DNA of 64,000 nt from Sphaerisporangium sp. Lineage in GTDB: Bacteria; Actinomycetota; Actinomycetes; Streptosporangiales; Streptosporangiaceae. Each line of letters begins with the position of its first letter. The stretch's first letter is position 1. The notes below the pieces were generated by a model. The model had not been told where the DNA came from. It saw only the letters and a list, made by a program, of their open reading frames with translations, and did no database searches. Shown in pieces: positions 25,130 through 43,434 of the stretch. A program made the position numbers and the translations under genes. The stretch is taken from positions 62,001 to 126,000 of the forward strand of contig JAOPYI010000238.1 in NCBI GenBank assembly GCA_025964675.1. Reading direction: 5' to 3'.

Positions 25130-27541
25130 CTAAGAGCGCTTCCAGAAGGTGGTCCTCGGGCCGTGCGCCTCGCCCTTGCCGCCGGTCAGCTCGGTGAGCA
25201 CCGTGACCACGCGGAGCCACAGGCGTTCCACGTCCACGTCAGCGCCCGGCGTCTCGCACGCCGACAGCTCACGGGCGAGGGCCGACAGCTCGTTGTCACC
25301 GCCGCCGACGTAGGCCGCGAGAGCCGCGAGGCGGCTGCCCAGGTCGGCCAGGTAGCGCCGCCGCTCCGGCGCGGGAAGCGATTCCTGCGCCCGCAGCCGC
25401 GCGAGCTCCTCCACCAGCTGTGGCCGTACGGAGTCCACCGCGTGCGGGACCGGTGGCGCGGGCGGGGCCATCCTCCGGCCGGCCGCGCGAGTGGAGAACC
25501 GGCCCCGGGGAGCGCCACCCTGGGGAGCCGGGAACGGCTGCGGCCGACCCGGCACGTCCGAACCGCCCGCTTCCAGCTGCCCGCTCTCCTGCGTGCCCAC
25601 GCTGAAGATCGCGGGTGCGGCCGAGGTGGTGTACGCGGCTGGGGCGGCCATCATCGGCATGGCAGACGCCGCCTGGGCCGGCATGTCCCAGCCGCTCGGC
25701 ATCTCGACCGGCTGGACGACCCGGTGCGCCGGCCGTCCTTCGGCGACGACGCGCGTGTCCACGGCCACGAAGGCGGTGAACCGGCACAGCACCCCGTGCC
25801 GTAGCGATGTTTCGACGATCTCCCGCTCCAGGCCGTGCTCGCCGATGGCGTAGCGGTCCTCCAGGCGGCGCAGGTGCGCCCGTGCCCAGATGGCCCTCGG
25901 GGAGTCTCCCTCGGCCGGTGTCCCGGTCAGCCTCCGCTCCCAGGGCTTCCCGTCCGCCGCGACGCCGTGCACGGTGATTGAGCCTTGGGCGGGGCCGCGG
26001 AACCTCCCCGACACGGTCAAGGGCACGCCGGAGTACAGCGAGCCGAGATGGGTCACCGTGCCGGGAAGCACGTCGAGCCCGTCGGCCTTCAGCGCCAGGC
26101 CGGTGACCAGCGGGGAACCGATCCTGCGGTGGATGTGCTCCATCGCCTCATCCAGGCGGTCCTCCGACTCCACCAGCTCGCAGCGGCCGGAGCCGAGGCC
26201 CGCCAGCCTGCCGAGGAACCCGGCGTTGACGGCCCGGTCGATGCCCACGGTGTGGACCCGCACGGCCGCGAGCCGCGTGCCGAGGCGTTCCAGGATCTGG
26301 TCGTCGTTGCCGACCTGCCCGTCGGTGACCAGCACGAGCACCCGCTCCCTGGCCGGGTCGTCCAGCAGGTCCAGCGCCTGCTCCATGGGCTGGAGCATCT
26401 CGGTGCCGCCCCGCGCCTCCAGCCGGGCGAGGTGCTCGACGGCGCGGTAGCGGTTGCGGTCGGTGGCGGGGGCGAGCCCGGCGGCGAGCCCTTCCGGGCG
26501 TTCCACGTCGGTGTCGAACGACAGCACCGCGAACCTGTCGGCCGAGGTCAGCGTGTCGACGATGCGCGCCGCCGCGCGCCGGGCCGCGACCATCTTCCAT
26601 CCGGTCATGCTGCCGGAGCGGTCGAGGAGCAGCGCCACGTCCCGTGGCCGCCGCGCGGCCTGGTCGTCCGGCGGGGGCGGCAGCACGGTGAGCGTGAAGG
26701 TGCCGTCCCCGGCCTCGCCGCCGTCGCCGCTCTCGCCGTCAGGTACGAGGGTCAGCGAGCTGGAGGCCGTGAACTCCAGGCGCAGGACGAAGTCACGGTC
26801 GAGGCGCTCGCCGGGCTGGAGCCGGACGACGCCCTCCTCCTCGGTGACCACGTGCAGGCTGGACCGCATCTCCCTGAGGTCGAGCCCCGCCGGGTCGACG
26901 CGCGCCGTGAGCGACAGCCGTACGGGGTCGGGGAAGCCCGGCAGCAGCACCGGGGGAGTGATCCGCGACGCGTCCGGCACGGCGTCGGTGTCGGGGACCA
27001 CGCCGTGCCCCGCCGGCTGGCCGTCGAGCGGCGTGCCCGGGATGTAGCGGGGCGCCACGACGAGCGGGAAGCGGAAGGTCGCCGCGCCGTCCTCGTACGG
27101 GAGCGGCTGGCTGAGCGTCAGCCGTACGGTCACACGCTCGCCGGGGACGATGTTGCCGACCCGCATGGTGAAGACGTCCGGCCGCTCCTCCTCGGCGATG
27201 GCGGCCCGCCGCCCCTCGGAGACGGCCTGGTCGTAGTCGTGCCGCGCCTGGCCGCGCTCCTTGAGCACGCCCTCGACCACCCGGTCGTCGGCCTCCATCC
27301 GGAAGGAGGTCACCGCGGCCCGGTCTGGCAGCGGGAAGACGTACGTCGCCTCCAGCGGGACGTCGTAGGGATTGCGGAAGCCCTGGGCCACCTCCACGCC
27401 GGAGGTGAGTGCGGTGATCCGCGCGTCCACCTCGACGCTCTCCAGCGGCAGGTTCCCCTTGCCGGTCCGCAGCGCGCCGAGCCCCGCGTCGGGCAGTGGC
27501 GTGTACTCACCGGGCTTCAACGAGGTGATCTGGACAGTCAT
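25130..27541 (-). CDS. VIT and von Willebrand factor A domain protein
   Basis: This 803-residue protein has an N-terminal VIT domain (about residues 25-155; VEVAQGFRNPYDVPLEATYVF and GQARHDYDQAVSEG) and a VWA domain with a complete metal-ion-dependent adhesion site, DRSGSMTGWK near residue 305, so it should bind a divalent ion and a protein ligand. The C-terminal third is Ala/Pro-rich and of no known fold. No signal peptide is visible, so it is probably cytoplasmic. ATG 27541 overlaps the stop of the MerR gene (ATGA); the long open frame beyond it is antisense to nothing real and overlaps MerR. Function of bacterial VIT/VWA proteins is mostly unknown. Confidence 0.85.
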   Translation of the reverse strand: MTVQITSLKPGEYTPLPDAGLGALRTGKGNLPLESVEVDARITALTSGVEVAQGFRNPYDVPLEATYVFPLPDRAAVTSFRMEADDRVVEGVLKERGQARHDYDQAVSEGRRAAIAEEERPDVFTMRVGNIVPGERVTVRLTLSQPLPYEDGAATFRFPLVVAPRYIPGTPLDGQPAGHGVVPDTDAVPDASRITPPVLLPGFPDPVRLSLTARVDPAGLDLREMRSSLHVVTEEEGVVRLQPGERLDRDFVLRLEFTASSSLTLVPDGESGDGGEAGDGTFTLTVLPPPPDDQAARRPRDVALLLDRSGSMTGWKMVAARRAAARIVDTLTSADRFAVLSFDTDVERPEGLAAGLAPATDRNRYRAVEHLARLEARGGTEMLQPMEQALDLLDDPARERVLVLVTDGQVGNDDQILERLGTRLAAVRVHTVGIDRAVNAGFLGRLAGLGSGRCELVESEDRLDEAMEHIHRRIGSPLVTGLALKADGLDVLPGTVTHLGSLYSGVPLTVSGRFRGPAQGSITVHGVAADGKPWERRLTGTPAEGDSPRAIWARAHLRRLEDRYAIGEHGLEREIVETSLRHGVLCRFTAFVAVDTRVVAEGRPAHRVVQPVEMPSGWDMPAQAASAMPMMAAPAAYTTSAAPAIFSVGTQESGQLEAGGSDVPGRPQPFPAPQGGAPRGRFSTRAAGRRMAPPAPPVPHAVDSVRPQLVEELARLRAQESLPAPERRRYLADLGSRLAALAAYVGGGDNELSALARELSACETPGADVDVERLWLRVVTVLTELTGGKGEAHGPRTTFWKRS

Positions 27542-28377
27542 GGGTGCATTCCTTCGGACGGGGATCGGTCGAGGTCGGGGTGGATGGGACCGGTGCCGGG
27601 ATCGGCGAGGTCCCGGTCGCGCAGCGCGTCGAGCAGGGTCGCGGCGGCTTCCTGGAGGGCGGCGACGTCGTCGGGCGACGGAGTACGGCCTTCGAGTAGC
27701 AGCGTGACCCCGGGCGCGAGCCGTACGCCGTGCAGCAGCCCTTCCGGCTGCGGGCTCGGACGGACGCCGGTCGGCCGTCCGAAGGCGGGGGCCACGGCGT
27801 CGGGAACGATCCCGGTCAGGGCCGGTGGGGTGAGGCCGGGCATGGCCGGAGGCGCGAGCCCGGGTACGAGCGGCGGGGTGAGGCCGGGCACGGCCGGTGG
27901 GGTCAGGCCGGGCACGGACGCGGTGGTGTGCTCCGGTACGGCCTGAGGGGTGACCGCCGGTCGTTCCGTCCAGAAGCGCTGCCGGGCGGGCGGCAGCCCG
28001 GAGCCGGTCCTGCCGTCGGCGTTCGGCTCGGGCCCGGGGTCCCCGCCGGGCACGAGCCCGGCCGGGGAGGCGATCCGGGCGATGGCCTCCAGGGTGGCGT
28101 CGGTGGCGCCGGCGAGCTCGGCCTGGATGTCGGCGATGGAACGCCCCTCGGACTGGCGGCGCTTGACCGCGATGAGCTGCAGGAGATGGCGCCTGCCGTA
28201 CAGCGCGACCCTGCCTCGGCGGGTCAGCGGCGGGTCGAGCAGGCCGATCGTCGTGTACCACCGGATGAGCCGCTCGTTGGGCACGTCGCGAACCCGGCCG
28301 TTGGGCCGTGGCGACGTCGGGCGCAGCGTGCCGGCCGCCCGCTCCGCCAGCTCGCCGATGGTCCAGGTGTCACTCAT
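27538..28377 (-). CDS. MerR-family transcriptional regulator with Pro/Gly repeat linker
   Basis: This 279-residue protein has a MerR winged helix-turn-helix (WTIGELAERAAGTL; RLIRWYTTIGLLDPPLTRRGRVALYGRRHLLQLIAVKRRQSEGRSIADIQAEL, about residues 4-95). A central segment contains about five imperfect copies of a PGLTPPAV-like unit (about residues 155-205), and an alpha-helical C-terminus follows. No effector-binding cysteines are seen. I chose ATG 28377 after GAGG, because the seven extra upstream codons overlap the operator. Its stop overlaps the VIT/VWA start, so regulator and effector are co-translated. The inverted repeat just upstream suggests autoregulation and joint control of the divergent dps gene. 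Confidence 0.85.
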   Translation of the reverse strand: MSDTWTIGELAERAAGTLRPTSPRPNGRVRDVPNERLIRWYTTIGLLDPPLTRRGRVALYGRRHLLQLIAVKRRQSEGRSIADIQAELAGATDATLEAIARIASPAGLVPGGDPGPEPNADGRTGSGLPPARQRFWTERPAVTPQAVPEHTTASVPGLTPPAVPGLTPPLVPGLAPPAMPGLTPPALTGIVPDAVAPAFGRPTGVRPSPQPEGLLHGVRLAPGVTLLLEGRTPSPDDVAALQEAAATLLDALRDRDLADPGTGPIHPDLDRSPSEGMHP

Positions 28378-28387
28378 ACCTCGATAC

Positions 28388-28412
28388 TGACACTGCAACT
28401 ATTACAGTGTCA
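28388..28412. promoter_or_regulatory. Inverted repeat in the merR-dps divergent region, probable MerR operator
   Basis: TGACACTG and CAGTGTCA form a perfect 8-base inverted repeat with a 9-base spacer (total 25 bases), in an unusually A/T-rich patch. It begins 11 bases before the merR start and 77 bases before dps, overlapping where merR transcription should start. Confidence 0.65.
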
Positions 28413-28488
28413 ACGTTTAGGACGACTCAGATCGGTTAGGGCGTTCTAGGTAAGGAGGCCAGAAACCACTCTCGGGGGGAGAAACTTC

Positions 28489-28956
28489 ATGGCCCGGATC
28501 ACCAGCCCTCTGTCAAGCGACAATCAGAAGATCACCGGTGAGGCCCTTCAGGGCGCGCTCATCGACCTGCTCGACCTCTCGCTTGTGGGCAAGCAGGCCC
28601 ACTGGAACCTGGTAGGGCGCAACTTCCGGTCGCTGCACCTCCAGCTGGACGAGATCGTCGGCATCGCGCGGGCCCGGGCCGACGACGCGGCCGAGCGCGC
28701 CGTGGCCGTCGGGGTCAACCCCGACGGGCGCGCGGCGACCGTCGCCCGCGACTCCCAGCTGGAGCAGCTCCAGGCCGGCTACATCGAGGACGAGAAGGTC
28801 GTCGGCGCGTTCACCGACATCCTCGGGGGGATCGTCGCCCGCATGCGCGAGCGTGTGGCCGCCACGGAAGAGGCCGACCCGATCTCGCAGGATCTGCTCA
28901 TCGAGACGACCGAGGATCTGGAGAAGCAGCACTGGATGTTCCAGGCGCAGCGCTGA
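28489..28956 (+). CDS. dps: Dps-family DNA-protection ferritin
   Basis: This 155-residue four-helix protein should assemble into a 12-mer that oxidises and stores iron with peroxide and shields DNA. The inter-subunit ferroxidase signature KQAHWNLVGRNFRSLHLQLDEI (about residues 35-56) has the needed histidines, aspartate and glutamate. Length matches the family. ATG 28489 is preceded by GGGGGGAG. It is divergent from merR-VWA and shares the TGACACTG repeat region, so the MerR protein may control it. Confidence 0.93.
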   Translation: MARITSPLSSDNQKITGEALQGALIDLLDLSLVGKQAHWNLVGRNFRSLHLQLDEIVGIARARADDAAERAVAVGVNPDGRAATVARDSQLEQLQAGYIEDEKVVGAFTDILGGIVARMRERVAATEEADPISQDLLIETTEDLEKQHWMFQAQR

Positions 28957-28972
28957 CCTTCCTCACCGGTCT

Positions 28973-28994
28973 CCGGCGGTCGACCGGCCGGTGA
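28973..28994. terminator. Weak hairpin between dps and the KAP gene
   Basis: TCACCGG and CCGGTGA can pair (7 bp) around an 8-base loop between two convergent genes. There is no T-run; a possible bidirectional terminator. Confidence 0.35.
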
Positions 28995-29003
28995 ACCGGT
29001 GCG

Positions 29004-32000
29004 TCAGATGAGATCACGTGCGAGAAAGGCGATCGAGGGCCGGGCGGCCAGCAGGGCGCGCAGAGCGTCCCAGCGCGCCGCGCCGGCCCTCAGGTTCCTC
29101 AGCAGCCCCACCTCGGTAAGGGCGCGCGCCCATTCGTCGGGCCCGGGCCGGGCCGCCGCCAGCTCCAGCCTTTCCAGCACGGTGTGGCCGGACGCCCCGC
29201 GAGGCGACCCCCACTCGCCGGACGCCGATTCCGGCACGTCCAATGGCTCTCCCGAGATGGGCATGGCAGCCGTTTCGGGGCGCCCGACGCTGTCGCGGTC
29301 CCGAGCGAGCAGGGACAGCAGATGCGGCCACCGGATCGTCAGGACCGCGAGCTTCGCCACCTCCTCGTCCGTCGCCTTCGGCGCACCCGCCAGAGCGCGC
29401 CGGTAGGTGACGAAGGAGTAGAACCGGAACACGTTCACATACCGCTTCAGCTCCCTGGGATTGCTCAGCGTGAGCGCGGGAAGGGCCCGCTCGATGGCGG
29501 CGTACGCGTTCTGGTCGCTGTAGAGGTCGTCGTAGACCCGGTCCGCCGCCAGCCGTGCCGCCGCCGACAGCCCGCCGATGGTGACGTCGGAGGCCGCCCT
29601 CGGGGAGGCGGGCGGTACCGCCTCGGCGAACGTCTGACGACCGACTGGAGTCGTCTCCTGCACCCGGCGCGCCACCGCGTCGAGGTCGTCGGCCGTCGGG
29701 CCGAGCGCCCTGATGGCCGCCTCCATGCGGTCGACCAGTTCCGGATCACTCTGCACAGCCGTGGCCTGCGCTCCACGCCCGCCCCCGTCGTCCCGCTCGC
29801 CGGGACCGCCGCCGTACGGCCCCGGGGGGACGTCGAGCAGCGTGCGCAGGAACGCGGGGACCCGCTCGCCGTCGTCAAGCAGCGGCACGCTGAGCGGCAG
29901 CTGCACGATCTTCTCCAGGAACCGCCACCCGAGACCCGACCGCTCCTCCATGGCCGGGGGCAGCGTGCGGGCGAGGTCGCGGTAGGCCACCTCCACGTGC
30001 GCCGCCACCACCTCGGGCTCCATCGCGAGCACGAAGACGCAGTTGGGGAACTCGCCGGCCACGAACAGGTTGACCGCCTCGATGACCTGCGCGACCGTAC
30101 CCGGCGAGCACCTGTCGAGGTCGTCCACGAACACCACCAGGGGCCGCTCCTCGGTGGCCACCATGCCCAGCACGCGCCGCATGTCAGTCTGCACCAGATG
30201 CAGGAAACCGGTTCTGGACCCGTAGCCGGGGTCGGGGGACAGCTCCGTGACCAGGTCGGGGGCCGCCGTGCCGAGCAGGTCCGGCTGGCGGACCAGCTTG
30301 CGGAACGCGCTGTCCGCCGACTCGCCGAGGAAGCGCGCGAGCCGTACGGCCGCCGCGGCGAGCACGAGCAGGGAGCCGCCCGACCCGACGGCCGCCGCCG
30401 TGCCCCGCAGGAAGGAGCCGAGGGCGGGCAGAAGGGCCCCGGCGGCGAGCGCCGCGCCGGTGAACACCAAGGTGGCGCAGAAGGCCAGGGCGACCGGCAG
30501 CAGGCGCGTCGCGGCCAGCCGGTAGGCCCGCCGGCGTACCGCCTCCCGGTCGATCCGCGAGAGGTTGAGCGCCAGCCAGAAGCGTTCACGCTCGCCCCGC
30601 GGCAGGCGGCACGTGACCTGGCTGATGATCTCGTGGGCCAGCCCCGCCCAGACCTGCTCGCCGCTCTGGTACATCCACGGGTTGAACCACACGGTCGGCC
30701 GCCAGTCGGCGTGCCGCAGCGGCAGCTCGCCCGGCACGGCGTACTCCCCGCCGCCGTCATCCGGCACCTTGGCCCGGGCGAGCACCTCGGCGTTCGTCAC
30801 CTCCGCCGACGGCCGGCTGGGCCCGTTGAGGTGGATCTCGGCGGGGCTGCCCTCGGCGGCGCCGGGGTCCAGCAGATCCTGCACCATGCGCATCAGCGAG
30901 GTCTTGCCCGCCCCCCAGGGACCCTTGATGCCGATGGTCAGCGGCGGGCGGGTGTCCGGGTGACGGACGAACGCGGCGATGGCCTCGGCGTGGACGCGGT
31001 GGCCGAGCCGGTCGTGAATCGTCCACCGGTCGCCGGTCAGCCGGGCCCGGGGCTGGACGGCGCGGCGGGCGGCACGCCAGCGGCGCAGCAGGGAGGAGAC
31101 GTGTGACAGCTCCTCGGCGTCCAGCCGGTCGGCGAGGGCCCGGCGGATCCCGGGGTCGGCGAACGGGGTGCCCCGCCCGAGCAGGCCCCACTCCACCAGC
31201 TCCCGGACCGCCTCGCCCGCCGGGGTGCCCTCGATGAGCAGCTCCGCGACCTCCGGCGTGACCGGTTCGTCCTCGGCCAGCAGGGTCGCGCGGCGCAGGA
31301 GCTCCCTGGCGTCCTCGCCGAGGTGGACCTCGTAGATCCTTCCCACAAGCTCGGCGGCCGAGACCGGCGGCACGGGATCGCCCACGACGGCGAGACGGGC
31401 CAGCGCGGTGCCGAACGCGGCGCCGAGATCGCGTACGGAGTCCCGTGCGGACGCGACGCCGATCAGCTCGCCCTCGCCGTAGGTGAGCAGGTACGGCCGG
31501 CGGTCGGCCCCGATGTCGGCGCAGCGCTCCTCGGCGTACCGGTAGAGGTCGCCGACGGAGATGAGGCCGTCACGGTCGAGATCGGCGTCGCCGGAGAGGA
31601 TGCCGTCGGCGAGGATCGCGGTCAGGGAGACGGCCCGCCCTGGCCGTTCCCCGGGCATCGTGGCACTGGTGGTGAGCGCGGCGGCCGCGGCCACGGGCTC
31701 GCCCCTGACCCGCAGACGGCTCTGGGTCTCGTGGGGCTGGTCCGGGTTCGCCGTCACGAGCCAACCGAAGTCGACGATCAGCAGCAGCGCGGCGCCGTCC
31801 GACCGCTCGACCCGGCGGGCGAACTCCGCCATCAGCGCGCCGAACTCGCGCCGCCCCCAGCCGGACTCGGTCGACCAGCGGACCAGGAGCAGGTCGCCTG
31901 GCTCGACGGCGTCCAGGAAGGCGCCGACGAGCCGGTGGTCGCCCGCGTCGCACTCGGCCGTCTCGACGGCGTACCCCTCGGAGGTGAGGGCGTGGACGAG

Positions 32001-32114
32001 CCTGCGGTCGGCTCCGCCCGTCGCCTTGGGGCCGCTTTCCCGGTCGAGGAAGACGAGGGCCTTGCGCGTTCTGATCGTCGGAGCGGGCGGGGCGGAAACG
32101 ATCATCGAGGTCAT
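29004..32114 (-). CDS. KAP-family P-loop NTPase with inactive caspase-like N-terminal domain
   Basis: This 1036-residue protein has four parts. Residues 15-215 follow the caspase/C14 fold pattern (KALVFLDRESG; DLLLVRWSTESG where the catalytic His would be; ALLLIVDFGWLV where the Cys would be; then SLTAILADGILSGDADLDRD, an EF-hand-like acidic loop, GLISVGDLYRYAEE). Both catalytic residues appear to be missing. Residues 255-350 look like a winged-helix linker. The KAP NTPase follows: Walker A GPWGAGKTS (398-406), Walker B LVVFVDDLDRCSP (659-671), and between them the two-helix transmembrane insert (539-594) typical of KAP proteins. The start ATG 32114 has GGAG upstream. KAP proteins are membrane-associated and recur in conflict and defence systems. 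Function here is unknown; no partner gene adjoins it. Confidence 0.8.
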   Translation of the reverse strand: MTSMIVSAPPAPTIRTRKALVFLDRESGPKATGGADRRLVHALTSEGYAVETAECDAGDHRLVGAFLDAVEPGDLLLVRWSTESGWGRREFGALMAEFARRVERSDGAALLLIVDFGWLVTANPDQPHETQSRLRVRGEPVAAAAALTTSATMPGERPGRAVSLTAILADGILSGDADLDRDGLISVGDLYRYAEERCADIGADRRPYLLTYGEGELIGVASARDSVRDLGAAFGTALARLAVVGDPVPPVSAAELVGRIYEVHLGEDARELLRRATLLAEDEPVTPEVAELLIEGTPAGEAVRELVEWGLLGRGTPFADPGIRRALADRLDAEELSHVSSLLRRWRAARRAVQPRARLTGDRWTIHDRLGHRVHAEAIAAFVRHPDTRPPLTIGIKGPWGAGKTSLMRMVQDLLDPGAAEGSPAEIHLNGPSRPSAEVTNAEVLARAKVPDDGGGEYAVPGELPLRHADWRPTVWFNPWMYQSGEQVWAGLAHEIISQVTCRLPRGERERFWLALNLSRIDREAVRRRAYRLAATRLLPVALAFCATLVFTGAALAAGALLPALGSFLRGTAAAVGSGGSLLVLAAAAVRLARFLGESADSAFRKLVRQPDLLGTAAPDLVTELSPDPGYGSRTGFLHLVQTDMRRVLGMVATEERPLVVFVDDLDRCSPGTVAQVIEAVNLFVAGEFPNCVFVLAMEPEVVAAHVEVAYRDLARTLPPAMEERSGLGWRFLEKIVQLPLSVPLLDDGERVPAFLRTLLDVPPGPYGGGPGERDDGGGRGAQATAVQSDPELVDRMEAAIRALGPTADDLDAVARRVQETTPVGRQTFAEAVPPASPRAASDVTIGGLSAAARLAADRVYDDLYSDQNAYAAIERALPALTLSNPRELKRYVNVFRFYSFVTYRRALAGAPKATDEEVAKLAVLTIRWPHLLSLLARDRDSVGRPETAAMPISGEPLDVPESASGEWGSPRGASGHTVLERLELAAARPGPDEWARALTEVGLLRNLRAGAARWDALRALLAARPSIAFLARDLI

Positions 32115-32298
32115 CGGCGGGCTCCAGTGGCCGGGCGGCGGGCTCGACGCCCCGAAGCCGCCGGGCCGCGCGATACGGCGCTCGTACGATGATCCCAGGG
32201 GCTGGGCCGACCCGAGGCCCGGCGCGAGCGGGCCGGGCCGGTGCTTTGCCGGATGTTTGCCCCGGCCCTGGTGCTCCCCCGAATCAGGGGCATGGCGC

Positions 32299-32304
32299 TA
32301 TTGT
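32299..32304 (+). promoter_or_regulatory. -10 box for leaderless lactonase mRNA
   Basis: TATTGT lies 7 bases before ATG 32312 and no ribosome-binding site is present between them. Confidence 0.45.
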
Positions 32305-32311
32305 CGATCAC

Positions 32312-33328
32312 ATGACTTCGGGGTTCGACGTGCTCTACATCGGCGGATACACACCCGACACCGGGGGGTCCGGCGCCGGGCTGACGGTGGTCAGGAGGGA
32401 GGAGGGCGGCGTGCTGAGGGCGCTGGCCGAGACGGCCGCGCCAGGCCCGTCCTTCCTCGCCCTGCACCCTCGGCTCCCCGTGCTGTACGCGGCGCTTGAG
32501 CGCGAGGAGGGCGGCGTGGCGGCCTACTCCGCCGACCCCGACGGCCCGGGCCTGCTGGCGGACGCCGCGAGCGGCGGATCGTACCCCTGCCACCTGGCGG
32601 TCGACCCCACCGGCACGTGGCTCGCGGTCACCAACTACGGCGACGGCACGCTGGCTATGTTCCGGCTCGGCAGCTCCGGCCTGTTCGACGGCCGCCCGAG
32701 GCTCTTCCCGCATGAGGGCCACGGGCCCGACCCGGCGCGGCAGGCCGAGCCGCACGCCCACCAGGCCGTCTTCGGCCCCGGACGGGCGCTCCACGTCACC
32801 GACCTCGGCACCGACGAGGTTCGCCGCTACCTCCTCGGCACCGAGCCGGCCGTCCACCCCGAAGGCCCCGTACGGCTGGCGCCGGGCAGCGGCCCGCGCC
32901 ACATGGTCCACCACGAGGGCCGCTGGTACGTCGCCGGCGAGCTGGACGGCACGATCGCGGTGTACGACGCCGAGTGGCGCGAGCTCGGCCGCACGCGGGC
33001 CAGCGAGGCCACCGGCCAGAACCACGTCTCCCACCTCCAGCTGTCCGCCGACGGGGGTCACCTCTACGTCGCCAACCGGGGTCCCGACAGCATCGCCGTC
33101 TTCGGGGTCGAGACCGGCGAGGACGGCGCCGGGCTGACCCGGGTGGCCGAGGTGGGCTCCGGAGGACTGTGGCCCCGGCACTTCGCCCTGGCGGGCGATC
33201 ACATGTACGTCGCCAACCAGCGTTCGGACGCGGTGGCCACCCTTATGATGCGTGACGGGGTGCCCGTGCCCACGGGGGAGACCTTCAAGGTCGGCAGCCC
33301 CGCGTGCGTGCTGGCCGTACCCCAGTAG
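32312..33328 (+). CDS. Lactonase family beta-propeller (6-phosphogluconolactonase-like)
   Basis: This 338-residue seven-bladed propeller resembles Pgl-type 6-phosphogluconolactonases, which hydrolyse 6-phosphoglucono-lactone in the pentose phosphate pathway. Typical segments are YIGGYTPDTGGSG at the start, CHLAVDPTGTWLAVTNYGDGTL, EPHAHQAVFGP, SGPRHMVHH and LYVANRGPDSIAVF. The frame extends upstream to 32189 but without coding character; ATG 32312, 7 bases after TATTGT, fits the family start. Other lactones are possible substrates. Confidence 0.85.
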   Translation: MTSGFDVLYIGGYTPDTGGSGAGLTVVRREEGGVLRALAETAAPGPSFLALHPRLPVLYAALEREEGGVAAYSADPDGPGLLADAASGGSYPCHLAVDPTGTWLAVTNYGDGTLAMFRLGSSGLFDGRPRLFPHEGHGPDPARQAEPHAHQAVFGPGRALHVTDLGTDEVRRYLLGTEPAVHPEGPVRLAPGSGPRHMVHHEGRWYVAGELDGTIAVYDAEWRELGRTRASEATGQNHVSHLQLSADGGHLYVANRGPDSIAVFGVETGEDGAGLTRVAEVGSGGLWPRHFALAGDHMYVANQRSDAVATLMMRDGVPVPTGETFKVGSPACVLAVPQ

Positions 33329-33419
33329 AGACCGCCGCGGCACCCCTGCGGCCCGGCCGCGACGGGGTGGCGCCCGTACGAAACGCGGCTCCGCGAGGCT
33401 TATGAGGCGCTCTCACCAC

Positions 33420-33433
33420 TTGGTCTAGACCAA
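33420..33433. promoter_or_regulatory. DasR-type dre palindrome
   Basis: TTGGTCTAGACCAA is a perfect 14-base palindrome containing TGGTCTAGACCA, the core of the DasR-responsive element of actinomycetes (GntR-family control by glucosamine-6-phosphate/GlcNAc). It is 120 bases upstream of the phosphofructokinase start and 92 bases downstream of the lactonase stop. Confidence 0.75.
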
Positions 33434-33492
33434 TGTTGGCGGCTGGGGCACAATGCCTTGCGGTGGCGGCCGCCGCGGGATGCGCGAAAGCA

Positions 33493-33522
33493 TTCTGGCG
33501 GCCGCGGAGCTCAACATAGTCT
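33493..33522 (+). promoter_or_regulatory. Promoter of the phosphofructokinase gene
   Basis: TTCTGG (33493-33498) and TAGTCT (33517-33522) are 18 bases apart, 31 bases before the start codon. The -35 match is partial. Confidence 0.45.
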
Positions 33523-33552
33523 GACTGTGTACCCCATCGGGAGGAACCCGCC

Positions 33553-34578
33553 ATGCGTATCGGAGTGCTCACAGGGGGCGGCGACTGCCCCGGGCTGAAC
33601 GCGGTCATCCGTGCCGTCGTCCGCAAGGGCATCGGCGTCTACGGCCACGAGTTCGTGGGTTTCCGCGATGGCTGGCGCGGCCCGCTCGAGGGCGAGATGA
33701 TGCCCCTGGAGGTCCAGACCGTGCGGGGCATCCTCCCGCGCGGCGGCACGATCCTCGGCTCCTCGCGGACGAACCCCATCAAGATCGAGGGTGGCGTCGA
33801 CCGCATCAAGAAGAACCTCGCGGACGGCGGCGTCGACGCGCTGATCGCCATCGGCGGCGAGGACACGCTGGGTGTCGCCAAGCAGCTCTTCGACCTCGGC
33901 GTCAACGTCGTCGGCGTGCCGAAGACCATCGACAACGACCTCAACGCCACCGACTACACCTTCGGCTTCGACACGGCCGTCAACATCGCGACCGAGGCGA
34001 TCGACCGCCTGCACACCACGGCGGAGTCCCACCACCGCGCGCTGATCTGCGAGGTCATGGGCCGTCACGCCGGCTGGATCGCGCTGCACGCCGGCATGGC
34101 CGGCGGCGCCAACGTCATCCTGATCCCCGAGAAGCCCTTCGACATCGACAAGGTCTGCGCGTACGTCGAGAGCCGCTTCAAGACCCTCTACTCGCCGATC
34201 ATCGTGGTGGCCGAGGGCGCCCACCCGATCGAGGGCCAGATAGCGCTGCAGGCCGGTGAGCTCGACGCGTTCGGCCATGTCCGCCTGGGCGGCATCGGCG
34301 AGCTGCTCGCCCACGAGATCGAGAAGCGCACCGGCAAGGAGGCCCGCACCACCGTGCTGGGCCACGTGCAGCGCGGCGGCACCCCGAGCGCGTTCGACCG
34401 GGTGCTCGCCACCCGCTTCGGCCTCCAGGCGATCGACGCCGCGAACGACGGCGACTTCGGCAAGATGGTCGCGCTTCGCGGCACCGACATCGTCCGCGTC
34501 GGCCTGGACGCCGCGACCTCCGAGCTGAAGACCGTGCCGCCGTCCCGCTACCAGGAGGCCGAGGTCTTCTTCGGCTGA
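33553..34578 (+). CDS. pfp: 6-phosphofructokinase, residues predict the PPi-dependent type
   Basis: This 341-residue enzyme phosphorylates fructose 6-phosphate in glycolysis. Motifs are GVLTGGGDCPGLNA (phosphate loop), GGEDT at residues 101-105, PKTIDND at 123-129 with the catalytic aspartate, and MGRHAGWIAL. Position 104 is aspartate and position 124 lysine. In the PFK superfamily, Asp104 with Lys124 marks pyrophosphate-dependent enzymes, as in Amycolatopsis, while Gly104 marks ATP-dependent ones. The reaction may therefore be reversible and use PPi. The start ATG 33553 follows GGGAGGA. A dre palindrome lies upstream, suggesting linkage to amino-sugar metabolism. Confidence 0.88.
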   Translation: MRIGVLTGGGDCPGLNAVIRAVVRKGIGVYGHEFVGFRDGWRGPLEGEMMPLEVQTVRGILPRGGTILGSSRTNPIKIEGGVDRIKKNLADGGVDALIAIGGEDTLGVAKQLFDLGVNVVGVPKTIDNDLNATDYTFGFDTAVNIATEAIDRLHTTAESHHRALICEVMGRHAGWIALHAGMAGGANVILIPEKPFDIDKVCAYVESRFKTLYSPIIVVAEGAHPIEGQIALQAGELDAFGHVRLGGIGELLAHEIEKRTGKEARTTVLGHVQRGGTPSAFDRVLATRFGLQAIDAANDGDFGKMVALRGTDIVRVGLDAATSELKTVPPSRYQEAEVFFG

Positions 34579-41615: not shown

Positions 41616-42188
41616 ATGCCCAACGTGACACCCGACCGACACGGCCTGGCGGGCCTCAACGCGCTCAGCCCTCCCGAGGCCGAGCGGGAGCTGCTGAGCT
41701 GCTGTGCCTCGCGCGCGTTCGCCCGCCACGTCGCGGGCCTGCGGCCGTACGACGACCCGGCCCGGCTCGCCGACGCCGCGGCCGCCGCCGTCCGCGACCT
41801 GGACTGGCCCGACGTGCTGGAGGCACTGGCGGCCCACCCGAGGATCGGCGACCGTGCCACCGGGCCGGGCCGGGAGTCGTCCTGGTCCCGCGACGAGCAG
41901 TCCGGCACGGCGGGGGCCGACCGGCGGGTGCTCGCCGAGCTGGCCGCGCGTAACGTGCTGTACGAGCAGCGGTTCGGCCACGTCTACCTGATCTGCGCCA
42001 CCGGCCTGACCGCGGAGGCGATGCTCGACCGGCTCGGGGGTCGCCTGCTGAACGACGAGGACACCGAGCGGGCCGTGGTCCGGGAGGAGCTCGCCAAGAT
42101 CACGCGTCTGCGGGTGGCTAAGCTCCTCGCGAGGGATGAGGAGCGCGCATCACCCCGTCCAGGCCGCGACGGCGAGGAGGAGACGTGA
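41616..42188 (+). CDS. uraD: OHCU decarboxylase (urate degradation)
   Basis: UraD decarboxylates 2-oxo-4-hydroxy-4-carboxy-5-ureidoimidazoline to S-allantoin, the third step from urate. The 190-residue protein has the active-site histidine in AAHPRIGD (about residue 74) and the DEQSG segment, plus FGHVYLICATG. A 20-residue charged tail extends past the usual end. It is the first gene of the operon; its TGA stop overlaps the uraH GTG (GTGA). Confidence 0.92.
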   Translation: MPNVTPDRHGLAGLNALSPPEAERELLSCCASRAFARHVAGLRPYDDPARLADAAAAAVRDLDWPDVLEALAAHPRIGDRATGPGRESSWSRDEQSGTAGADRRVLAELAARNVLYEQRFGHVYLICATGLTAEAMLDRLGGRLLNDEDTERAVVREELAKITRLRVAKLLARDEERASPRPGRDGEEET

Positions 42189-42508
42189 GCCTGTCCACCC
42201 ACGTGCTGGACTCCAGCAACGGCCGCCCCGCCGAGGGCGTGCCCGTGAGCCTGCACCAGGGAGACCGCCTGGTGGCAATGGGCGTGACCGGCCAGGACGG
42301 GCGGCTGCGCGACTGGCTCCCCGACGGGGAGCCAGGCAAGGGCGTCCACCGCCTGGTCTTCGACACCGGCGCCTACTTCGCCCGGGCGGGTGCGACGGCG
42401 TTCTACCCCGAGGTGGTCGTCACCTTCGTCGTCGACGACCCGGCGGCGCACTACCACGTGCCGTTGCTGCTGAGCCCGTTCGCCTACTCGACGTACCGAG
42501 GGAGCTAG
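42185..42508 (+). CDS. uraH: 5-hydroxyisourate hydrolase (transthyretin-like)
   Basis: This 107-residue protein hydrolyses 5-hydroxyisourate, the second step of urate breakdown. The N-terminal STHVLDSSNGRPAEGVPV carries the catalytic histidine, and the C-terminus is the diagnostic YRGS. It overlaps uraD by 4 bases and ends 2 bases before the uricase start. Confidence 0.95.
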   Translation: MSLSTHVLDSSNGRPAEGVPVSLHQGDRLVAMGVTGQDGRLRDWLPDGEPGKGVHRLVFDTGAYFARAGATAFYPEVVVTFVVDDPAAHYHVPLLLSPFAYSTYRGS

Positions 42509-42510
42509 TG

Positions 42511-43434
42511 ATGACCGTCGTCCTCGGACCCAACCGCTACGGCAAGGCGGAGACCCGCGTCGTCCGCGTCACCCGCGACGGCGAGGTCCACCACCTCAAG
42601 GACTGCAACGTCAGCATCTCGGTCTCCGGCGCCATGGAGGACGTCCACAGGAACGGCTCCAACGCCGCCGTGCTGCCGACCGACTCGCAGAAGAACACGG
42701 TCTACGCGTTCGCCAAGGAGCACGGGATCGGGCAGATCGAGGAGTTCGCCCTGCTGCTGGCCCGGCACTTCGTCGGCTCTCAGCCCACCATCCACCACGC
42801 CCGCGTGGCGGTGGAGGAGTACTCCTGGGAGCGCCAGGGGCCGCATTCCTTCGTGCGCTCGGCCACCGAGACCCGCACCTGCGTCGTGCACCACGACCGC
42901 GACGGCACCTCCACGGTGGTGTCGGGCCTGCGGGACCTGGTCCTGCTGAACTCCACGGGCTCGGAGTTCCACGGGTTCATCCAGGACGAGTACACCACGC
43001 TCCCGCCGGCCACCGACCGGGTCCTCGCCACCGCCGTCACCGCCCGCTGGCGCCACGCGTCTCCCGCCGAGCCGGCCGATCCGCCCGGTGTCGCGCCGCG
43101 TGGCGGAGCGGCTTCCGGTCCCGTCGGGTCGTACGATTTCGGGAAATCGTACGACGTAGCGCGGCGCTGCCTGCTGGAGGCGTTCGCCGACACCCACAGC
43201 CTCTCCTTGCAGCAGACCTTGTACGCCATGGGCAGCCGCGTGCTGACCACCCGCGACGAGATCTGCGAGGTACGGCTGGAGCTTCCCAACAAGCATCACT
43301 TCCTGGTGGACCTCGCGCCCTTCGGCCTGGAAAACGACAACGAGGTGTACTTCGCGGCCGACCGTCCGTACGGGCTGATCGAGGGCACCGTGCTCCACGA
43401 CGACGCGCCGGCCGCCGGCCCGGCCTGGGACTAG
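42511..43434 (+). CDS. pucL: Urate oxidase (uricase)
   Basis: This cofactor-free enzyme oxidises urate to 5-hydroxyisourate. The 307-residue protein has two T-fold repeats with the catalytic threonine in PTDSQKNTVYAFAKEHG (about residue 69), the arginine/glutamine region SLSLQQTLYAMG, and LPNKHHFLVDLAPFGLENDNEV. A Pro/Ala/Gly-rich loop of about 25 residues (residues 182-206) is longer than usual. Directly after it, the DNA contains a 28-base palindrome coding SYDFGKSYD. ATG 42511 is 2 bases after the uraH stop. Confidence 0.93.
   Translation: MTVVLGPNRYGKAETRVVRVTRDGEVHHLKDCNVSISVSGAMEDVHRNGSNAAVLPTDSQKNTVYAFAKEHGIGQIEEFALLLARHFVGSQPTIHHARVAVEEYSWERQGPHSFVRSATETRTCVVHHDRDGTSTVVSGLRDLVLLNSTGSEFHGFIQDEYTTLPPATDRVLATAVTARWRHASPAEPADPPGVAPRGGAASGPVGSYDFGKSYDVARRCLLEAFADTHSLSLQQTLYAMGSRVLTTRDEICEVRLELPNKHHFLVDLAPFGLENDNEVYFAADRPYGLIEGTVLHDDAPAAGPAWD
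43128..43155. repeat. Perfect palindrome within the uricase gene
   Basis: GTCGTACGATTTC and GAAATCGTACGAC are 13-base arms separated by GG. It is A/T-rich relative to its surroundings and lies inside coding sequence. Confidence 0.7.

What the first reader, a model, noticed from the sequence alone, without database searches (positions are those of the whole stretch)
29004..32114. Inactive caspase-like domain fused to a winged-helix linker and a KAP membrane NTPase
Seen: a C14-like order of strands with an acidic EF-hand-like loop (DADLDRDGLISVGDLYRY), but WSTESG and VDFGWLV stand where SGHG and DxCxSG usually are, so both catalytic residues seem lost. A KAP NTPase with two-helix insert follows. 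Known: caspase-like plus STAND/KAP combinations occur in bacterial conflict and anti-phage systems. Inference: a pseudo-protease sensor coupled to a membrane NTPase, standing alone without a neighbouring effector.
Basis: partly seen in the sequence, partly recalled or inferred. Interest (0 to 1): 0.75.

Follow-up and report, generated by a model that had tools for sequence, protein, structure and literature searches.

The report
Dead caspase fused to membrane NTPase
A soil actinomycete and its relatives carry, at a fixed chromosomal spot, a single membrane protein that joins a caspase-shaped domain without its cutting residues to an ATP-driven switch, which suggests a caspase fold reused as a binding or control part rather than as a protease.

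Summary
ORF 29004-32114 (-) encodes 1036 residues: a caspase-fold domain (about 15-226), a helical linker related to winged-helix-type segments (about 258-350), and a KAP NTPase (375-898) with intact Walker motifs and two predicted membrane helices. The model of the N-terminus matches MALT1, metacaspase 4 and caspase-7 (Z 13.9-14.9); profile comparison links it to EACC1-type caspases. In 43 of 43 sequences the catalytic Cys position is Gly, inside an invariant D-F-G-W, and no row has a His near the former His site. Purifying selection acts on the dead domain (dN/dS about 0.25). In what I searched it occurs only in Streptosporangiaceae, its tree fits vertical descent, and it sits at one conserved locus beside housekeeping genes, with no partner gene shared by most loci. 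16 of 47 carrier genomes have no detectable C14 caspase, so it does not depend on one. Related KAP proteins carry a kinase, NB-ARC or cold-shock domain in the same slot. Best reading: a resident membrane KAP switch whose pseudocaspase is a cis-acting binding or control module. The anti-phage reading is neither supported nor excluded. New variant of a known kind.

The parts
29004..32114 (-). whole gene, 1036 aa, pseudocaspase - linker - KAP NTPase
   Evidence: ORF, GGAG upstream of the ATG, 42 related loci with both parts, most at a conserved site
31437..32072 (-). caspase-fold domain without catalytic dyad, residues 15-226
   Evidence: AlphaFold2 model and fold comparison; hhalign to EACC1-type caspases
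31761..31772 (-). invariant D115-F116-G117-W118 in place of DxCxSG; G117 at the catalytic Cys position
   Evidence: 43 of 43 sequences; alignment
31866..31880 (-). invariant R79 and the strand end where the catalytic His would follow (residue 83 by ungapped continuation)
   Evidence: column counts in 43 sequences; the His itself lies opposite a gap
31533..31589 (-). acidic EF-hand-like loop and following helix start, residues 176-194; loop optional in the family
   Evidence: 26 of 43 by pattern; same loop in EACC1-type caspases
31065..31343 (-). helical, winged-helix-type linker, residues 258-350; absent in L069 and L070
   Evidence: hhalign 97.4% to kinase-KAP linkers, 30% to NB-ARC-KAP; absence seen
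29421..30992 (-). KAP P-loop NTPase, residues 375-898
   Evidence: PF07693 2.6e-28
30894..30923 (-). Walker A, GPWGAGKTSL, residues 398-407
   Evidence: invariant apart from residue 402 in 43 of 43
30336..30503 (-). two predicted membrane helices inserted in the NTPase, about residues 538-593
   Evidence: hydropathy, long helices in the model
30108..30131 (-). Walker B, FVDDLDRC, residues 662-669
   Evidence: invariant in 43 of 43

Best explanation
A lineage-specific, membrane-anchored KAP NTPase switch of Streptosporangiaceae whose N-terminal slot holds a caspase fold that has lost both catalytic residues. Shown by computation: the fold, the dyad loss in every member examined, purifying selection, intact NTPase motifs, predicted membrane helices, a shared locus, a tree that fits vertical descent, and presence in genomes without detectable C14 caspases. 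Inferred: ATP binding or hydrolysis by the KAP part switches the protein between states at the membrane; the pseudocaspase acts in cis as a non-catalytic module that holds a peptide or partner in the former substrate cleft, or keeps the NTPase off until a partner binds. The invariant R79 and D-F-G-W at the old active site are the likely core of that interface, or a structural plug. The family probably arose when a caspase related to the EACC1-associated type was joined to a winged-helix-KAP scaffold that elsewhere carries a kinase, NB-ARC or cold-shock domain in this slot, and was then kept as a resident gene.
For: Fold and homology. DFGW and R79 invariant in 43 of 43; a run of 4 among 15 invariant positions of 212 arises in 70 of 20000 random placements. 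Median dN/dS in 28 Sphaerisporangium pairs: 0.246 for the pseudocaspase against 0.136-0.208 for the three KAP parts, 0.377 linker, 0.424 membrane pair, 0.57-0.63 for the tail and a variable stretch. Exchangeable N-terminal domains: kinase L077 and L081, NB-ARC L071, cold-shock L084; shared linker. Shared locus. Each of the seven genera with two or more rows is one clade and the family is separated from other KAP proteins with 99/100 support. EACC1-type caspase matches in 31 of 47 carriers against 148 of 250 non-carriers (counted); the 16 carriers without one have no Peptidase_C14 match (0 of 16).
Against: No test of function, ligand, partner or NTPase activity. The second hydrophobic stretch is weak, so membrane insertion is a prediction. 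Most of the sequence signal for caspase homology lies in the loop and helix around residues 176-200, so the claim leans on the model; Foldseek TM-scores are modest (0.33 over the whole 376-residue model). Gene trees were not compared with a species tree. Many Nonomuraea-type genomes lack the gene at the site, so it is dispensable there. A few carriers have a same-strand MarR-acetyltransferase gene upstream (7 of 42), a possible partner.
Confidence: 0.55

Rival explanations
1. An anti-phage or cell-suicide protein: the KAP part senses infection at the membrane, as proposed for proteins like Tmn, PifA or QatA, and the pseudocaspase recruits a downstream partner.
For: KAP part hits QatA 5e-22, PifA 1e-19, PDC-S20 1e-12 in PADLOC. 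Tmn is described as a KAP-family NTPase with two transmembrane domains that blocks phages (PMC11846954, passage seen). About 70% of caspases in the effector position of vWA-MoxR systems are inactive according to PMC7159879 (passages seen).
Against: Shared locus among housekeeping genes, tree that fits vertical descent, only marginal defence hits among ten neighbours; no phage match, plasmid matches partial. QatA NCBIfam score 97.7 against a cut-off of 600. The best-scoring PADLOC stretches lie in the KAP part.
Confidence: 0.25
2. A c-FLIP-like regulator that binds and restrains or activates an active caspase encoded elsewhere in the genome.
For: The own genome has one EACC1-type caspase on contig C29, with YFSGHG and DCCYAG still present, behind an EACC1-like small gene (the EACC1 label is mine from the paper's description). 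Inactive caspase folds regulate active ones in animals (recalled).
Against: 16 of 47 carriers lack any EACC1-type match and any Peptidase_C14 match; presence is 31 of 47 against 148 of 250. Limits: the profile counts do not check for an intact dyad, and the Pfam model misses the pseudocaspase itself, so a very diverged active caspase could have been missed.
Confidence: 0.1
3. A protease with a relocated or unusual active site.
For: Caspase fold kept under purifying selection; T165 is invariant, T148 is Thr in 42 and S163 Ser in 37 of 43.
Against: No Cys, His or Ser column is invariant in the domain; best Cys column 8 of 43, best His column 25 of 43.
Confidence: 0.04
4. A domain in decay without a function of its own.
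For: No profile library tried recognises it; the linker has been lost in two Nonomuraea (L069, L070).
Against: dN/dS 0.25, invariant DFGW and R79 across 43 sequences of eight named genera and one unclassified strain.
Confidence: 0.06

Closest known systems
EACC1-associated caspases (NCBIfam NF047832; system 4 of Kaur et al. 2020, PMC7159879, passages seen)
   Same: Caspase fold, acidic DxDxDG loop followed by a helix, in related genomes; strong profile match
   Different: Of the nine compared, all keep TGHG or SCHG and eight keep DCC.SG (L093 has DCRYSG, Arg at the Cys site); no KAP domain was seen in the frames read. Here the Cys, the His and the segment after the His are gone, and no EACC1 neighbour is present
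Bacterial pseudo-orthocaspases (Klemencic et al. 2019, PMC6426788, passages seen)
   Same: Bacterial caspase folds with both catalytic residues replaced
   Different: Reported forms commonly have YS, YN, YA or FS pairs, were found with a Peptidase_C14-derived profile, and have TPR, trypsin-like or unknown partners in the passages seen; here the Cys site is DFGW, profiles fail, and the partner is a KAP NTPase
Inactive caspases of vWA-MoxR ternary systems (PMC7159879, passages seen)
   Same: Inactive caspase domains in bacteria with a multicellular habit
   Different: There fused to a vWA protein in a system with MoxR; here fused to KAP and standing alone
KAP NTPases Tmn, PifA and QatA
   Same: KAP NTPase; for Tmn also two transmembrane domains according to PMC11846954 (passage seen)
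   Different: No caspase-like domain known to me (recalled); QatA works with QatB-D (recalled), no Qat hit among ten neighbours; QatA score far below its cut-off
Hypermutated STAND or KAP NTPase targets with N-terminal peptidase or TIR effectors (PMC10907252, passages seen)
   Same: An NTPase, in some cases KAP, behind an N-terminal extension that in some targets is a peptidase
   Different: Those have C-terminal CLec domains varied by retroelements; the passage does not say that a KAP target carries a caspase
Kinase-, NB-ARC- and cold-shock-KAP proteins of actinomycetes (L077, L081, L071, L084)
   Same: Homologous KAP; kinase forms share the linker strongly
   Different: Different N-terminal domain, none of the window's neighbour genes beside them; outside the pseudocaspase-KAP clade

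Membership tests
KAP family P-loop NTPases | Match to the KAP profile above its cut-off | tested here: met
   PF07693 99.6 bits against a cut-off of 20
KAP family P-loop NTPases | Membrane helices inserted in the NTPase domain | tested here: met
   by prediction only: 19-residue hydropathy peak 2.16 at 538 and a weaker one (1.74) at 572, long helices in the model
KAP family P-loop NTPases | Intact Walker A and B | tested here: met
   invariant in 43 of 43
Caspase superfamily by fold | Caspase fold | tested here: met
   predicted model, VIA Z 14.9 over 172 residues to MALT1 4i1r, rmsd 3.4; not a solved structure
Active C14 peptidases | His-Cys dyad | tested here: not met
   Gly at the Cys position in 43 of 43; no His in residues 74-95 in 0 of 43 rows having one
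Active C14 peptidases | Peptidase_C14 profile match | tested here: not met
   0 of 43 members at E <= 1
EACC1 two-gene system | NF047832 match and a neighbouring EACC1 gene | tested here: not met
   no NF047832 hit for the three members tried; in the window the neighbours are a lactonase and Dps; across 42 loci the usual neighbours are PhoX-like c3 and Dps. I did not scan all neighbours with an EACC1 model
Pseudo-orthocaspases | p20 fold without p10 and with a replaced dyad | tested here: inconclusive
   fold and dyad loss met; the published set was defined by a C14-derived profile score, and these give no C14 match
Qat anti-phage system | QatA equivalog with QatB, C and D | tested here: not met
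   97.7 of 600 bits; no Qat hit among ten neighbours
Tmn anti-phage system | Tmn profile match and phage resistance | tested here: inconclusive
   no Tmn-named model among the eight PADLOC hits; I did not check that the library holds one; phage test not possible
STAND NTPases | NACHT, NB-ARC or nSTAND type NTPase | tested here: not met
   best STAND model nSTAND_NTPase5 13 bits against 34; KAP 99.6 bits instead

The most novel reading that the evidence does not exclude
A caspase of the conflict-system type was captured once near the root of a Streptosporangiaceae clade, lost its chemistry, and became the regulatory or ligand-binding domain of a resident membrane NTPase switch with a non-immune role, for instance in hyphal stress or sporangium development: a bacterial case of an apoptosis-type fold turned into a housekeeping receptor, working in cells with no detectable caspase at all.
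Probability: 0.3. Interest if true: 0.75.

Novelty: new variant of a known kind. Interest (0 to 1): 0.52.

Why it matters
Dead caspases are known as regulators in animals (recalled) and have been reported in bacteria, often in conflict operons. Here the dead form is the only caspase-like protein detected in 16 of 47 carrier genomes, and it is wired to a membrane NTPase at a shared locus. That makes a clean test case for what a caspase fold does without proteolysis, and for how conflict-type parts become resident genes. The shared linker also suggests that actinomycete KAP proteins swap N-terminal domains, including one that the profile libraries tried here miss.

Tried and rejected
Profile libraries on the N-terminus (Pfam, NCBIfam, PADLOC) and sequence searches of solved structures gave nothing useful for that domain; the fold came from the model. 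An Rfam scan of 28000-33600 found nothing. The search of predicted viral structures gave mostly giant-virus caspases and metacaspases at the top, consistent with the fold. The fold search with the full-length model again gave caspases first, then flavodoxin-like folds; in the 50 rows shown there is no solved KAP relative, which says little as that model's confidence is lower (pTM 0.51).

Considered and rejected: annotation artefact (42 related loci, purifying selection); cargo of a mobile element (shared locus); obligate partner of an EACC1-type or other C14 caspase.

Rows dropped: of 61 loci, L089-L092 (weak KAP matches) were not analysed; L071, L073-L077, L079 and L081-L088 (15) lack the caspase-like part and served as KAP relatives only; 12 of these entered the tree. 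Of 43 family sequences, 28 went into A3 and 41 into the linker profile (too little linker in L069 and L070). L053 is cut short at the N-terminus by its contig. Of 20 Dps loci fetched from non-carriers, 13 with a second shared neighbour were read for the empty site. Gene calls come from my own codon-composition heuristic and some starts are too long.

Literature: the listings showed no paper on a caspase-KAP fusion of this kind (one search found no paper with all its four terms); the original KAP paper is not held. For PMC8195603, PMC7159879, PMC10907252, PMC6426788 and PMC11846954 I saw passages; for all others only the search listing.

Full report
What is there. The reading frame 29004-32114 on the minus strand is a gene of 1036 codons with GGAG just upstream of its ATG. 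The window lies on contig C45 of a 7.77 Mb genome. By this gene it groups with Sphaerisporangium species, so I take the host to be a Sphaerisporangium or near it (inference).

Anatomy. Residues 375-898 match the KAP NTPase profile (2.6e-28), and the own genome has no second KAP match at E <= 0.001. Walker A and B are invariant in 43 of 43 aligned sequences. Two hydrophobic stretches lie between them, at about 533-569 and more weakly 572-593, as long helices in the model. The N-terminus hits no C14 model in Pfam (0 of 43) or NCBIfam (three members tried).

The caspase fold. The model of residues 1-376 (mean pLDDT 83.9, pTM 0.82) matches MALT1 by Foldseek at E 3.4e-6; all 23 rows at E <= 0.001 are MALT1, metacaspase or caspase, though TM-scores are modest (0.33 over the whole model). 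The VIA second look gives Z 14.9 (rmsd 3.4, 172 residues) for MALT1, 14.1 for Arabidopsis metacaspase 4 and 13.9 for caspase-7, above the typical best Z of 7 to 8 that the tool states for models without a clear match. Independently, hhalign of 28 family sequences against nine caspases from related genomes gives 97.7%, E 1.3e-12 over 183 columns. Much of this comes from the acidic loop and its helix. Without them on both sides the match falls to 24%, E 8e-4, and with only one side cut to 11%, E 0.003; a reversed control gives 0.4%, E 0.17, and 15 column shuffles at most 0.3%. All nine comparison caspases keep TGHG or SCHG. Eight keep DCC.SG, while L093 has DCRYSG and so lacks the Cys. Three of them were scanned and match the EACC1-associated type NF047832.

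The dyad. In the profile alignment D115, F116, G117 and W118 stand opposite D, C, C (catalytic) and Y of LDCCYSG; the catalytic His lies opposite a gap, and by ungapped continuation of the strand it would fall on E83. G117 is Gly in 43 of 43; position 83 is G 14, T 12, D 8, E 7, S 1, gap 1; R79, D115, F116 and W118 are invariant too. No row has a His in residues 74-95. Five Microtetraspora rows have a Cys at residue 105 and two rows a His just after DFGW, but no His or Cys column is conserved (best 25 and 8 of 43). The EF-hand-like loop fits a strict pattern in 26 of 43, so calcium cannot be a general requirement.

Constraint. In 28 pairs of eight Sphaerisporangium sequences median dN/dS is 0.246 for residues 15-226, 0.377 for 230-350, 0.208, 0.136 and 0.205 for KAP parts, 0.424 for the membrane pair, 0.633 for 761-850 and 0.573 for the tail. 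The dead domain is therefore maintained.

The linker. It aligns with the linker of kinase-KAP proteins L077 and L081 (97.4%, E 1.2e-11), with cold-shock-KAP L084 over 46 columns (50%), weakly with the segment behind the NB-ARC domain in L079/L071 (30%), and not with five further groups (0.0-3.8%); reversed controls of four groups give 0.1-3.5%. NB-ARC was detected in L071; L079 was not scanned. NB-ARC proteins carry a winged helix there (recalled), so 'winged-helix linker' is reasonable, though the model shows helices without a wing. L069 and L070 lack it.

Distribution. 47 of 297 family genomes carry both parts (counted by me from the match table), including 11 of the 11 genomes of the own genus in that draw. 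In the order draw 39 of 200 matched at 1e-30, all of the same family, two of them (G183, G243) by the KAP part only. In the class draw 2 of 296, both of this family; in the phylum draw only the own genome (1 of 296). The contig collection gave 61 loci, 42 with the caspase-like part, all Streptosporangiaceae. These searches score few candidates per genome or start from six peptide patterns, so rare distant forms may be missed.

Descent and locus. In the KAP tree (55 rows) the pseudocaspase clade is separated with 99/100 support and each of the seven genera with two or more rows is one clade; several deeper forks are weak and no species tree was compared. In 39 of 42 loci at least one of Dps, MerR and VIT-VWA is recognisable; the other three (L047, L049, L052) share the divergent upstream gene c3, a PhoX-like protein (L038 1.4e-35). 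Dps is the next called gene downstream in 28 of 42 and c3 directly upstream in 24 of 42. A same-strand gene lies directly upstream in 12 of 42: c4, a MarR-acetyltransferase protein, in 7, others in 5; the window has none, as its upstream neighbour is the divergent lactonase. In 7 of 13 non-carrier loci that keep the neighbourhood, c3 lies directly behind Dps where the gene would be, and in two more with one called frame between: the site can be empty. Loss and gain cannot be told apart per lineage; presence at the same site in many genera favours old presence with losses.

Caspases in trans. An EACC1-type match exists in 31 of 47 carriers and 148 of 250 non-carriers (counted; intact dyads not checked). 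The 16 carriers without it have no Peptidase_C14 match (0 of 16). A role only as partner of an active caspase is thus unlikely. The own genome has one EACC1-type caspase elsewhere, with SGHG and DCC kept, behind a small gene that looks like EACC1 (my reading).

Scaffold. Related KAP proteins carry other N-terminal domains: protein kinase (L077, L081), NB-ARC (L071), cold-shock (L084). The caspase fold occupies the same slot. In STAND proteins the N-terminal slot holds the effector or adaptor (recalled), so I read the dead caspase as an adaptor or control part, with the sensor reading of the first stage as an alternative.

Defence reading. The best PADLOC stretches lie in the KAP part, QatA is far under its cut-off, and three of ten neighbours give only marginal hits. 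No phage record matches. Plasmid matches are partial: query residues 157-226 in one Streptomyces plasmid, KAP parts in one Rhizobium and one Pseudonocardia plasmid. The precedent of Tmn, a KAP-family NTPase with two transmembrane domains that blocks phages (PMC11846954, passage), keeps the reading alive.

Prior art. Pseudo-orthocaspases (PMC6426788, passages) and inactive caspases in vWA-MoxR systems (PMC7159879, passages) are known. KAP as a substitute for STAND in Death-like-domain systems is mentioned in PMC8195603 (passage), and KAP among hypermutated targets, some with peptidase effectors, in PMC10907252 (passages). The searches listed in Tried and rejected showed no description of this fusion. 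Verdict: a new variant of a known kind, real and conserved, with an untested function.

Noticed in passing
window 25130-28398 (-): VIT-VWA protein resembling 'marine proteobacterial sortase target' proteins (388 bits, cut-off 552) next to a MerR-type regulator; VIT-VWA was called in 35 and MerR in 23 of 42 related loci.
   Followed up: partly
L077 5239-8367, L081 5179-8091: Protein kinase fused through the same linker to a KAP NTPase in Nonomuraea sediminis and an Actinomadura; not looked up in the literature.
   Followed up: partly
L084 5572-8136: Cold-shock domain fused to a KAP NTPase in Amycolatopsis xylanica.
   Followed up: no
L093 788-3862: EACC1-type caspase with the His kept but Arg at the catalytic Cys position (DCRYSG), followed by hydrophobic segments and beta-propeller matches, in a genome of the same genus: a second, younger-looking dead caspase.
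   Followed up: partly
window 42136-43434 (+): 432-aa frame whose best uricase match covers residues 262-416, with two stretches in all; the first part of the frame was not examined.
   Followed up: no
L069 5983-8376, L070 6007-8397: Two Nonomuraea orthologues (798 and 797 aa) lack the linker, joining the dead caspase almost directly to KAP.
   Followed up: partly
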